From contig CM055611.1 of NCBI GenBank assembly GCA_029379385.1, positions 8,618,001 through 8,682,000 on the forward strand: 64,000 nt of DNA, given 5' to 3'. Position 1 is the stretch's first letter. The number at the start of each line of letters is the position of its first letter. Made by a program: the position numbers and the translations under genes. The notes under the pieces are model-generated. The model did not search any database, was not told the DNA's origin, and worked only from the letters and a program-made list of their open reading frames with translations. Source of the stretch: Quillaja saponaria (taxonomy: Eukaryota; Streptophyta; Magnoliopsida; Fabales; Quillajaceae). Shown in pieces: positions 28,401 to 64,000 of the stretch.

Positions 28401-29234
28401 TCATTTTTGGTTGGAAAGCAACAACAGAAGTACAGAACCCAAAGTAGTAATCTCAGAACTGAGGAGCATTTGGTATTGTCCATGTGATGATATAAAGTTC
28501 AAACCGGTCTCATTTACTTGCTTTCAAAAGAATACTGTGACCGTGTCTTTCAACAATAGATGGAAGGTTCTACTTGTATTTTTAAGAATTAGAGTTTGGT
28601 TATTTGTTTGAGTAGTATGCAGTACTCCTGCTTGTCTTGTTTCTATCATTCAATGGATTTGCTGAACATAAATTAAATAAAAAACAGAAAGAGAAGGGGA
28701 AGGGAAGGTTATAAAGTCACAAATATAGAATGGTTTTAAGAAATTCTTTTAAGGGGAAAGATGAAAACTTAAGAGATCAAGATTTATTAGCACCTACTAA
28801 CATCACCCAGAATAGGTCCTAGGAAGTTACATTTCTTTGTCCTTGGTCCTAATGCCAAGAAGCGAGAAAGGTTAATCATCATGTTAATGACACCAAATAA
28901 GATCTGTCTTATTTGATATTCTTATTACGTCCAAGCTTGCTTTACCTTTACTAAAGCTTTAAGTCTGCATCAATATCTTTTCAGGAGTGTTGCTTCCACT
29001 TTTCTCCTATATTCATATCTATTGGCCATTGTATATTTCTCTGCCACTAATATATCTTTTTTTTATACATTTGATTTGAGCTTAGGTATCTTAATATGAT
29101 GTGCTGCAATGTCAACTATATCTGCTGAAGTTGTTATCCAACTGCAGGTTTACACCATGGTTCAGAAATATAAGAAGAAAGATTTGTCCCCCGCAAAAAA
29201 GAGAAACAGAAGAACAAAGAAACTGAATTCTTGA
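22461..29234 (+). CDS. MUTYH: Adenine DNA glycosylase, MutY homologue
   Basis: This base-excision-repair glycosylase removes adenine mispaired with 8-oxoguanine. Seven exons: 22461-22850, 23726-23785, 24710-24829, 24895-24992, 25401-25936, 27022-27128 and 29148-29234. They sum to 1,398 nt, exactly 466 codons (465 residues plus TGA), which supports the splice model. Visible motifs are EVMLQQT with the catalytic Glu96, GLGYYRRAR, the helix-hairpin-helix LRKIPGIGDYTAG (169-181) and the catalytic Asp196 in VVDGNV. The 4Fe-4S cysteines are Cys250-x6-257-x2-260-x5-266. A C-terminal NUDIX-like 8-oxoG reader (KRPNEGLLAGLWEFPS) ends in GLTSSVRKV and a basic KKKDLSPAKKR tail that may direct nuclear import. 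No lesion was found. A second in-frame ATG at 22401 would add 20 residues. Arabidopsis MYH is longer, mainly at the N-terminus. Confidence 0.93.
27129..29147 (+). other. MUTYH intron 6 (2.0 kb)
   Basis: The longest MUTYH intron. Minus-strand frames such as 27907-28275 resemble no family I know and are probably chance. The part from about 28650 onward is repeated near 62660, and from 28814 onward also near 33021, so the breakpoints of the duplication array fall in this intron. Confidence 0.7.
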
Positions 29235-30727
29235 ACCCAAATTATTCTAATAGGCTGGAGGTATTTGAACAGAGTCTGCATTCTTTTATTTTGCTGCTAA
29301 CAGACTGGATATTAGCTAATAGCTACCTCAAATCTCAAGACTATGACAGCTGCCATTCTCTGTAGATGTATTTTGCTATATAATTGTCATTCTGTAATGT
29401 GCTACATAATTGTCATTTTGTAATGTATGTGTTAAAACTATGATTTGCATTGTTATTGGGTTTCTTGCTAAGGTAGCATAACCCCTCATTTTGTTTTAAA
29501 ATAATGATGCTTTTGCTTTCAGAAATCAGATGCTTGTAAATATTTGTTTATTATTTTTACTATAATTATTGTTACTAATATATTAAACCATTTTGTTCTT
29601 GATTGTCATGTTATCAATTTAGTTCCTTAATATTTAATTTTATCAATTGAATCCTTGATAGATTCAATGTTATCAATTTCATCTTCATATATTTGACTAA
29701 TTGAGAATTGATGAAAGTTTTTATTTAACTAGTTAAAAAAAAACGTAAATGAAGATTTTTATTGAATGTGCATGTGACATTTAGAGATGTAATTTTTTTT
29801 TTTTTAATTATATTAACATGCTAAATATCCAATTCAAAATTTACCAATACTTTCCGTAAAGAGTATTACATAACTAAAGCATTATGGACAATAAAAACTA
29901 TTATCTCAATGAAAGCTTGGATGAATTTGAATTTTTATTATAAAATCACCCAATCTACAACTTAGATTTAATCAATTTGTCGAGTTTCTGTCATCTTAGA
30001 TCGAGTTAGTACTTAGTGGGGTTTATGGTTTTTTGCACCCCTAAATTTAGCAATTATGTTTTTACTATTAATTTTTAATATTACATTTTAAATTTCATAT
30101 AACTATATTTTTATTGTCTTTGACCTAACAAAGATATTAATGTTAATCCCTAATTAGTGAAATATAGAGTGGAGCAAAAATTTATTATTAATTTTTATTT
30201 TTTTTTTACAATTTGTTCGAGAACATTCAACATTAGGGACTAAACTAATAATTTTAAAATCATTTAGGGATTTATTTGATAAATTGAACTTTGAAGGACA
30301 AAATTAATGAATTAAAAATCTTTCAAGGGTTTGACTGATAAAATTAAATATTGAGAGACAAAATTGATAAATTAAGCATTGTGAGGGACCAAAATAATAG
30401 TTTAGTCTAACTTTCTAATTAAAATAATTAGAAGTCTGATTTTCAAATTCCAATATGGTGGGATTTGACCATTAATTTTAGAGAATTAAATAAATAGTGA
30501 AATTAACTTTCTTACCATGTCTATGTTTCGCATACATAACAATGCTAGCTCTCTCTACTTGTGCGTAAGGTTGTAAAAAAGCTTTGGTCAAGTTGAGGCT
30601 TGAGTTGTTAAAAATTTAGACATACTCAATTAAAGAAAAGATGTGTAACAAGAGTCAAAGAGATTTAAACATTGGTCAATTGAAAAGCAAATAAGGGAAT
30701 AACCGTCAAACTCAATGAAATTCTCTA

Positions 30728-30761
<34 letters not shown>

Positions 30762-31758
30762 CATGTTAATATATTTATTATAAATTTATATACAAAATTA
30801 ATATTATATTAAATGAGCTGTGCTTTGTAAAGATTGAGTTTGACTATTTTACTAAATAGGGTTTAAATAATGCTTAAAATTGCCTAATTTTAAAACGAAT
30901 AGAGCTCTATTAATGAGTTTGTTTATAAAAACAATTGTTTTTATTTAGACCCCTATTTGTATGCATGTTCACTTTTGTTACAGTTTCTTTTATTTTCATG
31001 AGAAACAATTATTTTCTACGTTTTAGGTGAGGAGTAATTATATATAACTATTTTATAAATGAAACACATCGTGAATCATGAAAAAAATAGTGAAACCACA
31101 AAGACTCATACTGTATTTTTAGATAATAATTAATAGAAAATTTATATGTGGATCACTAATTTTGATAGGTGCGGGGGGTGGTGTGAATCTTTAAAAAAAT
31201 AGTGAAATCACATAGACTCATACTGTATTTTTAGATAATAATTTAATTGAAAATTTATATGTGGATCACTAATTTTGATAGGTGTAGGGGGTGGTGTGAT
31301 CAAAACTGATAGATGTGTTAAGTGATCTTATTTATATGGGTCTCTAGTCATAAAAAAGTTTTTGATTATTATTTTTTTGCTTAACTATTATTTTAGTCCT
31401 TCAAGATTGCCTAAAATTTTAATTTAGTCCTCAAAGAATATTTTCGGTCAATTTCATCTTCCAAGATTTAGAATTTTTCAATTAAGTTATTTTCTCTCAT
31501 TTTCATGTTATACATAAATAAAGTAATTATACATAATCTAATAATAAAATAACCAAAAAAGTTTTGCACAGTATAAAATTAATTTATATACGTTATTATA
31601 TTTATGTTAAGTTTGATTATTTTGTTAATTCATTACATGTAACAGAATAATAGAACTTAATTGAGAAATTTTGAACCTTGAAGGATAAAATTGACTGAAA
31701 AAATTCTTAGAGAACCAACTAAAGATTAATATAATCCTGAACTATCATAACAATAAAT

Positions 31759-31803
<45 letters not shown>

Positions 31804-62052: not shown

Positions 62053-62655
62053 GTTGCTTGTGAGTTAGTGTAGTCTTTACAAGTGTGTTGGAAAGGGTTG
62101 ACCATCCAATTCTTTATTGTTTTGTGGCTAGAAGTTTGTGGCAGTTCCTGTTTTGCCTCTATAATTATTCCACGTGCAGTTCTAGACCTTTTCACGTGTT
62201 TGAACTGTAAGATTGGTAGGAAAAGAAAACAAGTAGCATGGAAGGTTGTCAAAAGAAATTAGCATAAATGAGGCAGAGTAGCTTCATACCTGTGTAAGTA
62301 GGAATTCCTATAGAGGTAAATTACAATCGAAATCAACAAGAAAAACTTATAAAACATAAGAATGAAAGAAAGTTTATTTCTCCTAATTCATTTTATACAA
62401 AAAGAATTGGAGACTAACTAAATATTATAGCTAACTGACTCAATTTATGGAAGTCAAAATTTAAAAAAAAATACACTTATCCTTAAATGAATTGTTCTGC
62501 AAAACTTTCATTGACTAATTATTGCCATGTCAACATAATACTTTATTCCTCTTTTTCTTGTGGACTTGAAGAGCACCAATTTCTTTCAAAAACTTTGAAG
62601 TTCTCATTGTCGTGTTCTTGTATTCAAAAGTTAGCACAAATATGATTAAATTTGC
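62053..62655 (+). repeat. Mosaic segment from NAC/exportin-7 3' flanks
   Basis: 62053-62160 matches the NAC-B downstream DNA (46745-46860). 62255-62650 matches 47220-47600. The segment lies between a MUTYH intron 1 piece and a MUTYH intron 6 piece, so it is a product of at least two rearrangements. Confidence 0.8.
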
Positions 62656-63054
62656 TGATAATGGATTTGCTGATACATAAATAAAAACAGAGAGAGATGT
62701 GGAAGGGAAGGTTATGAAGTCAAAAATATAAAATAGTTTTAAGAAATTTTTTTAGAGGAAAGAAGAAAAATTGAGAGAGCAAGATTTATTAGTAATAAAC
62801 CACCAACATAACCCAGAATAGGTCCTAGGAAGTTACATTTCTTTGTCTTAATCCTAATGCCAAGAAACGAGAAAGATAAATCAAAATCCTGTTAATGCTA
62901 CCAAAAGTTCTATCTTATTTGATATTCTTATTGCCTCCAAGCTTGCTTTTCCTTGACTAAAACTTTAAGCCTGCATCAATATGATTTCAGGAGTGTTGAT
63001 TCCATTTGTCTCCTATATTCATGTCTATTGGCTGATATTGTTATCCAATTGCAG

Positions 63055-63128
63055 GTTTACATCATGGTTTAGAAATATAAGACCCAGCAAAAAAGAGAAA
63101 CTGAAGAACAAAGAATCTGAATTCTTGA
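63055..63128 (+). pseudogene. MUTYH-D last exon copy
   Basis: A third copy of MUTYH exon 7. It has the same TAG (MV-stop-KY) and the same AAC TGA change as copy B, plus a 13-base deletion after AAATATAAG. It lies within copy D, which starts near 62656 in intron 6 sequence. Confidence 0.9.
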
Positions 63129-64000
63129 ACCAGAAATTTTCTAATAGGCGAGAGGTATTTGAACTAAAATCCTGCATTCTTTTACTTTGCTACAAATAGA
63201 CTGGATATTAGCTAACAGCAACCTCAAAATCTCAGACTACGATAGCTGCCATTCTATACAGATGTATTTTGCTATATAATTGTCATTATGTAATGTATGT
63301 GTTAAAATTATGAATTGCATTGTTATTGGGCTTGTTGTTAGGGCAGCATAACCCCTCTTTTTGTTTTTTTAAAATATATATATATATATATGCTTTTGCT
63401 TTCAAAAATCATATGCTTGTAAATATTTATTTATTATTTTTATTATCATTTATTATTAGTAATACATTAACCCATTTTGTTCTTGACTGTCAATTATGAT
63501 TTAATGTTATCAATTTCGTCTCTCGATATTTAATTTTATCAATTGAATCCTTTACAAATTCAATGTTATCAATTTCATCCTTCTATTTATTTGACTAATT
63601 GAGAATTGATGAAATGTTTTATTTGACTAGTTAAGAGAAACAAAAATGACTATTTTTATTTAACGTGCATGTGACATTTAGAAAGGTAAATTTTTGTTTT
63701 ATTTTTTTAAAATTATATTAATATGCTAATTATCTAATTCAAAATTTATCCATACTTTTCATAAAGACAATCCCTAACATATTATAGACAACAAAAATAT
63801 TATTTCAATGAAAACTTGAAAGAATTTAGGTAGGACTGTGCAATTGGGTAAATGACTTGGGTTTGACATAGTTCTCACTTAACCTAACAAAGTTGAGTTG
63901 ACAAAAATCTCACTCAACTTTTTAAGTCGAGTGGTTAGATGATAGAAAATTTCACTTGGTTCAAATCTAAGGTGGGTCAATTGTGTTATGACTTTTTATT
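63129..64000. repeat. Duplication copy D, non-coding part, cut by the window end
   Basis: It follows copy B closely (40515 onward), including the start of the B-specific insertion at 63826. The sequence leaves the window inside that insertion. An AT microsatellite lies at 63373-63391. A further NAC copy may lie beyond the window; that is inference. Confidence 0.85.

What the first reader, a model, noticed from the sequence alone, without database searches (positions are those of the whole stretch)
28814..64000. Mosaic duplication array built from MUTYH, NAC and exportin-7 pieces
Four partial copies of one ancestral order (MUTYH 3' end, AT-rich spacer, NAC gene, 3' flanks converging on exportin-7) fill most of the right half of the window. 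One copy of MUTYH stayed intact while its neighbours were shuffled and broken. A DNA-repair gene sitting at the edge of a locus this unstable is unusual and could be a recurrent rearrangement hot spot or a birth-and-death NAC cluster.
Basis: partly seen in the sequence, partly recalled or inferred. Interest (0 to 1): 0.75.

Follow-up and report, generated by a model that had tools for sequence, protein, structure and literature searches.

The report
Broken tandem copies beside intact MUTYH
In a plant genome that looks like soapbark tree (Quillaja), pieces of a DNA-repair gene, a NAC regulator gene and a nuclear-export gene were copied several times side by side, decayed, and were split by jumping genes, while one repair gene stayed intact; the process is ordinary, but the place and order are worth recording.

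Summary
The window (best protein match Quillaja saponaria) holds an intact seven-exon MUTYH gene followed by a head-to-tail array of partial copies. Self-comparison of 28.65-64 kb gives 34 matches of 60 bp or more, 23 of them direct matches between copies; ten composition-keeping shuffles gave one match in all. Corrections: MUTYH 3' ends lie in copies A, B and D, while C carries a MUTYH 5' end; NAC lies in A (29-codon stub), B (whole length, two frame breaks) and C (last exon); exportin-7 is one exon, in B only. Two LTR retrotransposons explain the large gaps: a Copia (33115-40280, target duplication GTTCT) splits unit B, and a Gypsy element splits C's MUTYH copy. Copies are 75-95% identical at aligned bases, too diverged for duplicated haplotypes. 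In Bauhinia, MUTYH and exportin-7 are two gene numbers apart; the gene between was not seen. Q. saponaria models include two NAC-MUTYH chimeras, so more relic copies exist. Three of five joints show microhomology or possible filler, suggesting end-joining. No NAC copy here is whole, so a living birth-and-death cluster is not shown. I judge it a decaying tandem segmental duplication: real, of a known kind.

The parts
22401..29234 (+). Intact MUTYH (adenine DNA glycosylase) gene, exons 22401-22850, 23726-23785, 24710-24829, 24895-24992, 25401-25936, 27022-27128, 29148-29234; 485 aa
   Evidence: Every intron GT-AG, one open frame; 97% over 85% of the query to Q. saponaria A/G-specific adenine DNA glycosylase; HhH-GPD, EndIII_4Fe-2S and NUDIX_4 in two of its exons; MUTYH structures 8fay, 7ef8
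28652..33030 (+). Copy A: last MUTYH intron and exon, AT-rich spacer, NAC first-exon stub (29 codons, 32945-33031)
   Evidence: Self-matches to B, C and D; tblastn NAC stub
33021..33114 (+). Left end of copy B: last-intron MUTYH sequence joined directly to the NAC stub of A (junction J1)
33115..40280 (+). Copia LTR retrotransposon inside copy B; LTRs 33115-33580 and 39816-40280 (90.8%), target duplication GTTCT
   Evidence: LTR pair and flanks; gag_pre-integrs, Pol_BBD, Retrotran_gag_2, rve_3, RVT_2; joined flanks match copy D
40281..44818 (+). Copy B continued: MUTYH last intron and exon (exon relic 40425-40511 with two in-frame stops), AT-rich spacer
45126..46580 (+). Copy B NAC pseudogene: ATG 45209, NAM domain, two frame breaks, last exon about 46209-46580
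   Evidence: PF02365 E=4.6e-19; frames change in tblastn
46736..47612 (+). Copy B 3' flank of NAC, repeated in D (62045-62185 and 62249-62648) and partly in C (52301-52405)
47860..47994 (-). Exportin-7 last exon, probably a relic; preceded by an AG acceptor, open frame, three residues not seen in 94 other tails
49201..52405 (+). Copy C: AT-rich spacer, NAC last exon (51688-52107, open for 140 codons, no NAM domain), NAC 3' flank
52493..52775 (+). Copy C: MUTYH exon 1 relic, 87.6% to the intact exon, one frame shift
52778..61522 (+). Gypsy LTR retrotransposon inserted in the MUTYH exon 1 relic; LTRs 52778-53110 and 61191-61522 (90.7%); RNase H/integrase remains in 59320-60967; its 5' coding part not found, unidentified sequence there
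61539..62060 (+). Copy C: a further piece of the MUTYH exon 1 relic (with an in-frame TAG) joined by deletion to MUTYH intron 1 (91.4% to 22916-23404)
62045..64000 (+). Copy D: NAC 3' flank (62045-62648), filler-like junction, MUTYH last intron and exon relic (62660 onward); runs off the window

Best explanation
This is an old, decaying tandem segmental duplication downstream of MUTYH in Quillaja or a close relative. An ancestral interval (MUTYH, then a NAC gene on the same strand, then exportin-7 on the opposite strand) was copied head to tail in several rounds. Breakpoints fell inside genes, so rounds made truncated copies and chimeric joints. Three joints look like end-joining with short homologies or a filler (polymerase-theta type), not crossing-over between long repeats. 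LTR retrotransposons later landed in the dead copies. The leftmost MUTYH kept all its exons and is probably the working gene. Shown: the copies, their order, their divergence, the broken frames, the insertions. Inferred: the ancestral order, the joining mechanism, the time order of events, and that MUTYH is active.
For: 34 matches, 23 of them direct matches between copies, against 1 in ten shuffles. Intact MUTYH with GT-AG introns. Broken NAC and MUTYH pieces and a lone exportin-7 exon. Copia empty site: flanks joined in a script match copy D with about five mismatches and three gapped bases in 110, with GTTCT on both sides of the element. Divergence differs by segment: transversion K 0.140 spacer A-B, 0.119 NAC end B-C, 0.062-0.063 MUTYH 3' A against B or D, 0.047 MUTYH intron 1 A-C, 0.027 B-D, 0.022-0.024 for the two LTR pairs, so several rounds are likely. 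Junctions J1 (AGGT), J4 (TTGC) and J5 (11-bp ATTTGCTGATA present twice, four bases apart). Bauhinia gene numbers. Chimeric Q. saponaria models P0124 and P0126 joining the NAC C-terminal region to MUTYH exons 3-4. Templated fillers and microhomology as end-joining signs in Arabidopsis: PMC10923293 (passages seen).
Against: The exportin-7 exon frame is open, and NAC last exons B-C give dN/dS 0.60 over 101 codons, no error computed, so some copies may have been under selection for a time. LTR K2P (0.100-0.102) exceeds B-D (0.056) although D lacks the Copia; only transversions bring them into line, which I ascribe to methylation without proof. J2 and J3 are unresolved, and the short homologies had no chance control; the J5 repeat could also be a later local duplication. 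MUTYH and exportin-7 lack equal contig lengths in 22 of 24 species compared.
Confidence: 0.85

Rival explanations
1. Assembly artefact: alternative haplotypes or misjoined contigs laid end to end.
Against: Copies differ by 5-25% at aligned bases and carry different transposons. Q. saponaria gene models also show NAC-MUTYH joints, though whether they come from the window's own assembly is unknown.
Confidence: 0.04
2. A living birth-and-death NAC cluster, with active members elsewhere in the array.
For: Three NAC pieces here and two NAC-bearing models in Q. saponaria; NAC last exon of C open for 140 codons and dN/dS 0.60 between B and C.
Against: No whole NAC in the window. The read-through NAC gave 11 hits of 278 candidates; the two Quillaja ones are chimeric and carry no listed Pfam domain, and the best NAM-bearing ones are Xanthoceras, Litchi and Melia (38-50%). 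Unannotated genes or proteins outside the length filter would be missed.
Confidence: 0.12
3. Copies arose mainly by unequal crossing-over between transposons flanking the unit.
For: LTR elements are abundant in the window. The NAC 3' flank segment (46736, 52301, 62045) lies near two joints and matched no Pfam family, so an unknown element there is possible.
Against: The Copia and Gypsy elements lie inside units, and by transversions are about as young as the last duplication (total K2P ranks them older). I recognised no LTR sequence at J1, J4 or J5.
Confidence: 0.1
4. The exportin-7 exon is still in use, so that units C and D and the Gypsy element lie in its last intron.
For: Open frame with a splice acceptor, 91% to another exportin-7 tail. 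No Quillaja protein is among the 120 listed of 238 tail matches, as expected if gene finders lost a far exon.
Against: Residues N, N, E where 94 of 94 compared tails have S/G/T, D/E, K/R; a last intron of more than 16 kb would be needed; no other exportin-7 exon found in the window.
Confidence: 0.12

Closest known systems
Plant tandem segmental duplications with truncated, pseudogenised copies
   Same: Head-to-tail copies, gene-internal breakpoints, decay, LTR element insertions (general knowledge of the kind, recalled)
   Different: This interval pairs an intact DNA-repair gene with fragments of itself; four paper searches found no description of it, in a library that lacks most subscription journals
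Polymerase-theta end-joining scars in Arabidopsis (PMC10923293, passages seen)
   Same: Short homologies at joints and one possible templated filler
   Different: Those are experimental breaks; here the joints are old and each is seen once
MutY/MUTYH adenine DNA glycosylases
   Same: HhH-GPD, endonuclease-III-type iron-sulphur site, NUDIX-like domain, whole open frame
   Different: Five of 157 positions that are at least 95% conserved in plants differ (third, tied, of 121)
Copia and Gypsy LTR retrotransposons
   Same: LTR pairs, pol domains, 5-bp target duplication for the Copia
   Different: Both are old and broken; the 5' coding part of the Gypsy element was not found

Membership tests
Tandem segmental duplication array | Several copies in one orientation, in a shared internal order, above chance | tested here: met
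   23 direct matches between copies against 1 match in ten shuffles; C and D are rearranged internally
Tandem segmental duplication array | Single-copy ancestral order in a relative | tested here: inconclusive
   MUTYH and exportin-7 two gene numbers apart in Bauhinia; middle gene not seen; equal contig lengths in 2 of 24 species compared by hand
Duplicated haplotypes (artefact) | Copies nearly identical | tested here: not met
   75-95% identity at aligned bases
NAC birth-and-death cluster | At least one intact NAC member beside pseudogenes | tested here: not met
   Within this window only: A stub, B two frame breaks, C no NAM domain
NAC transcription factors (pseudogene B) | NAM domain | tested here: met
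   PF02365 E=4.6e-19
MUTYH | HhH-GPD, iron-sulphur and NUDIX-like domains in an open gene | tested here: met
MUTYH | Adenine glycosylase activity | not testable with these tools
   Needs experiment
Exportin-7 | Conserved C-terminal exon | tested here: met
   Up to 91% over 45 aa to exportin-7 proteins
Exportin-7 | Complete gene | tested here: not met
   One exon only in the window; the gene may continue outside
Copia LTR retrotransposon | LTR pair, Copia-type pol, target-site duplication | tested here: met
Gypsy LTR retrotransposon (52778-61522) | LTR pair with RNase H then integrase; target-site duplication | tested here: inconclusive
   LTR pair and RT_RNaseH, Integrase_H2C2 met; target duplication CTTAT only tentative
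Polymerase-theta end-joining | Microhomology or templated filler at joints | tested here: inconclusive
   3 of 5 joints (J1, J4, J5), no statistical control
Polymerase-theta end-joining | Dependence on the polymerase | not testable with these tools
   Needs experiment

The most novel reading that the evidence does not exclude
The MUTYH-NAC-exportin-7 interval is a recurrent end-joining hot spot in Quillaja that keeps copying fragments of a DNA-repair gene beside the working copy and has produced NAC-MUTYH fusion genes in Q. saponaria, some possibly transcribed.
Probability: 0.15. Interest if true: 0.5.

Novelty: new member of a known kind. Interest (0 to 1): 0.22.

Why it matters
It gives a layered record, with several ages and readable joints, of how plant tandem copies form, fuse and die next to a conserved repair gene. 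It also warns annotators: in Q. saponaria two such relics are named as adenine DNA glycosylase. If the hot-spot reading held, MUTYH dosage or fusion transcripts in the tree that yields the QS-21 vaccine adjuvant could be tested directly.

Tried and rejected
Rejected or disfavoured: haplotype misassembly (divergence too high); transposon-mediated crossing-over as the main cause (elements inside units); a guess from memory that the repeat at 46736/52301/62045 is a LINE zinc-binding domain (three pieces, no such Pfam match). A tRNA scan and an Rfam scan at gathering scores found nothing. A PDB search with the exportin-7 exon gave three weak matches to an unrelated protein. Four paper searches for such a locus found nothing relevant (listings seen). 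Searches looked for Quillaja genome papers (listings only, none read). led to PMC10923293 (passages seen).

Not achieved: a search of the window's own assembly (13 tries, machine unreachable), so the array's right end, the total copy number and an intact exportin-7 were not seen. The species rests on protein similarity only; the 97% MUTYH match means another Quillaja species or record, or that P0001 is a different copy.
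Full report
What the window is. The spliced MUTYH protein has its best match in Quillaja saponaria (97% over 85% of the query, P0001), with legumes mostly next; the genus sits in Quillajaceae, Fabales. The species is an inference from protein similarity. P0001 stops early in exon 6 and is 96% identical in the alignment, so the window is another Quillaja species or record, or P0001 is another copy.

The observation. Self-BLAST shows the reported diagonals. In 28652-64000 there are 34 matches of 60 bp or more; ten shuffles that keep dinucleotides in 500-bp blocks gave nine zeros and one single match. 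Of the 34, 23 are direct matches between copies; two are LTR pairs, four are repeats within one unit or element, and five are short inverted matches.

Anatomy. MUTYH is intact over seven exons from 22401 to 29234, with HhH-GPD, iron-sulphur and NUDIX-like domains. Its last exon is at 29148, after a 2-kb intron, and this 3' end is what is repeated. Copy A runs 28652-33030 and ends in a 29-codon NAC stub. Copy B begins at 33021 and resumes at 40281 after a Copia element; it holds a MUTYH last-exon relic with two stops, a NAC gene with its NAM domain (PF02365) but two frame breaks, the NAC 3' flank and one exportin-7 exon. Copy C (49201-52405) holds spacer and the NAC last exon, then a MUTYH exon 1 relic (52493) that is split by a Gypsy element and resumes at about 61539, where an in-frame TAG and a deletion into intron 1 are visible. 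Copy D starts at 62045 with the NAC 3' flank, passes through a filler-like joint into MUTYH's last intron at 62660, and runs off the window.

Retrotransposons. The Copia element has LTRs of 465 bp (90.8%), Copia-type domains and the target duplication GTTCT; its flanks, joined in a script, match copy D with about five mismatches and three gapped bases in 110. The Gypsy element has LTRs of 332 bp (90.7%), RNase H and integrase remains and only a tentative target duplication, CTTAT. A third, young Gypsy element lies at 7.8-13.4 kb (LTRs 99.2%).

Divergence and order of events. K2P between copies ranges from 0.056 (B-D, MUTYH 3' end) to 0.30 (spacer B-C). By transversions alone the order is spacer and NAC (0.092-0.140), B-D NAC flank (0.081), MUTYH 3' A against B or D (0.062-0.063), MUTYH intron 1 A-C (0.047; exon 1 0.033), B-D (0.027) and the LTR pairs (0.022-0.024). 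Total K2P instead puts the LTR pairs (0.100-0.102) before B-D (0.056), which cannot be literally right for the Copia, since D lacks it; LTR ts/tv is 2.9-3.4 against 0.6-1.2 for nine duplicated segments less one: the exon 1 pair A-C also has 2.9. B and D are close at the MUTYH end but not at the NAC flank, so D looks composite. The AT-rich spacer may evolve or align differently, so these are rough ranks, not dates.

Joints. J1 (33021-33030) shares AGGT between NAC and MUTYH intron; J4 (62045-62060) shares TTGC between MUTYH intron 1 and the NAC flank; J5 (about 62645-62660) has an 11-bp ATTTGCTGATA twice, four bases apart, where copy A has it once in part. J2 (start of C) and J3 (NAC flank to MUTYH exon 1) were not resolved. 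Microhomology and templated fillers mark polymerase-theta end-joining in Arabidopsis (PMC10923293, passages seen). I made no statistical control for these short matches, and J5 could be a later local duplication, so the mechanism is an inference.

Exportin-7. The 45-residue exon matches exportin-7 tails at up to 91%. Compared with the 94 tails that could be extracted from the 120 listed hits, it has three residues not seen at those positions. Two full-length exportin-7 queries found no other exon in the window. I take it as a relic, with the long-intron reading as a rival.

Relatives. In Bauhinia variegata MUTYH is L6164_000268 and exportin-7 L6164_000266, both on a contig of 19,845,194 bp. 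So the neighbourhood is supported in Fabales by one species and is not general. The window holds MUTYH exons 3-4 once only. The two chimeras share residues (SRTPEAV, CFCDLPYQ) that the intact gene lacks, so Q. saponaria has further MUTYH relics; whether these correspond to B, C or units outside the window is open (pairwise 66-79% in their NAC part with B and C and each other).

Function. MUTYH is probably active: open frame, intact splice sites. It ranks third (tied) of 121 for changes at positions conserved in at least 95% of the 119 other plant proteins (5 of 157; P0001 is second with 6 of 151; four of these positions are shared), which may be branch length or mild relaxation. No NAC copy here can make a whole protein. 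The NAC last exons B-C give dN/dS 0.60 over 101 codons, so selection may have acted for part of their history.

Verdict. It is a decayed tandem segmental duplication, a known kind in plants. The remaining interest is in the chimeric models and in whether the interval keeps rearranging.

Noticed in passing
7831-13357: Young Gypsy (chromodomain) LTR retrotransposon, LTRs 99.2% identical; protease, RT, RNase H, integrase and Chromo domains over two overlapping frames; apparent target duplication CGCAT (read).
   Followed up: partly
1631-4880: Protein kinase pieces (1631-2286) and an OSR1_C match just under its cut-off (2978-3397), suggesting a WNK-type kinase (name recalled), followed by a CCHC zinc knuckle piece at 3623-3928.
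   Followed up: partly
14503-16662: Minus-strand exon with NAD_binding_11 (14503-14880), likely a 3-hydroxyisobutyrate dehydrogenase/glyoxylate reductase type gene (name recalled); a further exon at 16471-16662 and retroelement-like pieces at 17.5-19.7 kb were judged by eye only.
   Followed up: no
53112-54202 and 55057-56158: Direct repeat of about 1.1 kb, 75% identical, inside the Gypsy element and more diverged than its LTRs; no Pfam match to two ORFs tried there; unidentified.
   Followed up: partly
49972-50879: Internal direct repeats of about 0.3-0.6 kb (70-71%) in very AT-rich DNA of copy C, where the NAC first exon would be expected.
   Followed up: no
46608-46682 against 52155-52229: A 75-bp stretch of the NAC 3' flank is inverted between copies B and C (86.7%); four other short inverted matches lie in the spacer and MUTYH flank (for example 42514-42609 against 63490-63586), perhaps a small mobile element.
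   Followed up: no
33115-33580, 39816-40280 and 52778-53110, 61191-61522: LTR pairs show ts/tv of about 3 against about 1 for most duplicated segments, so ordinary LTR dating would overstate their age here.
   Followed up: partly
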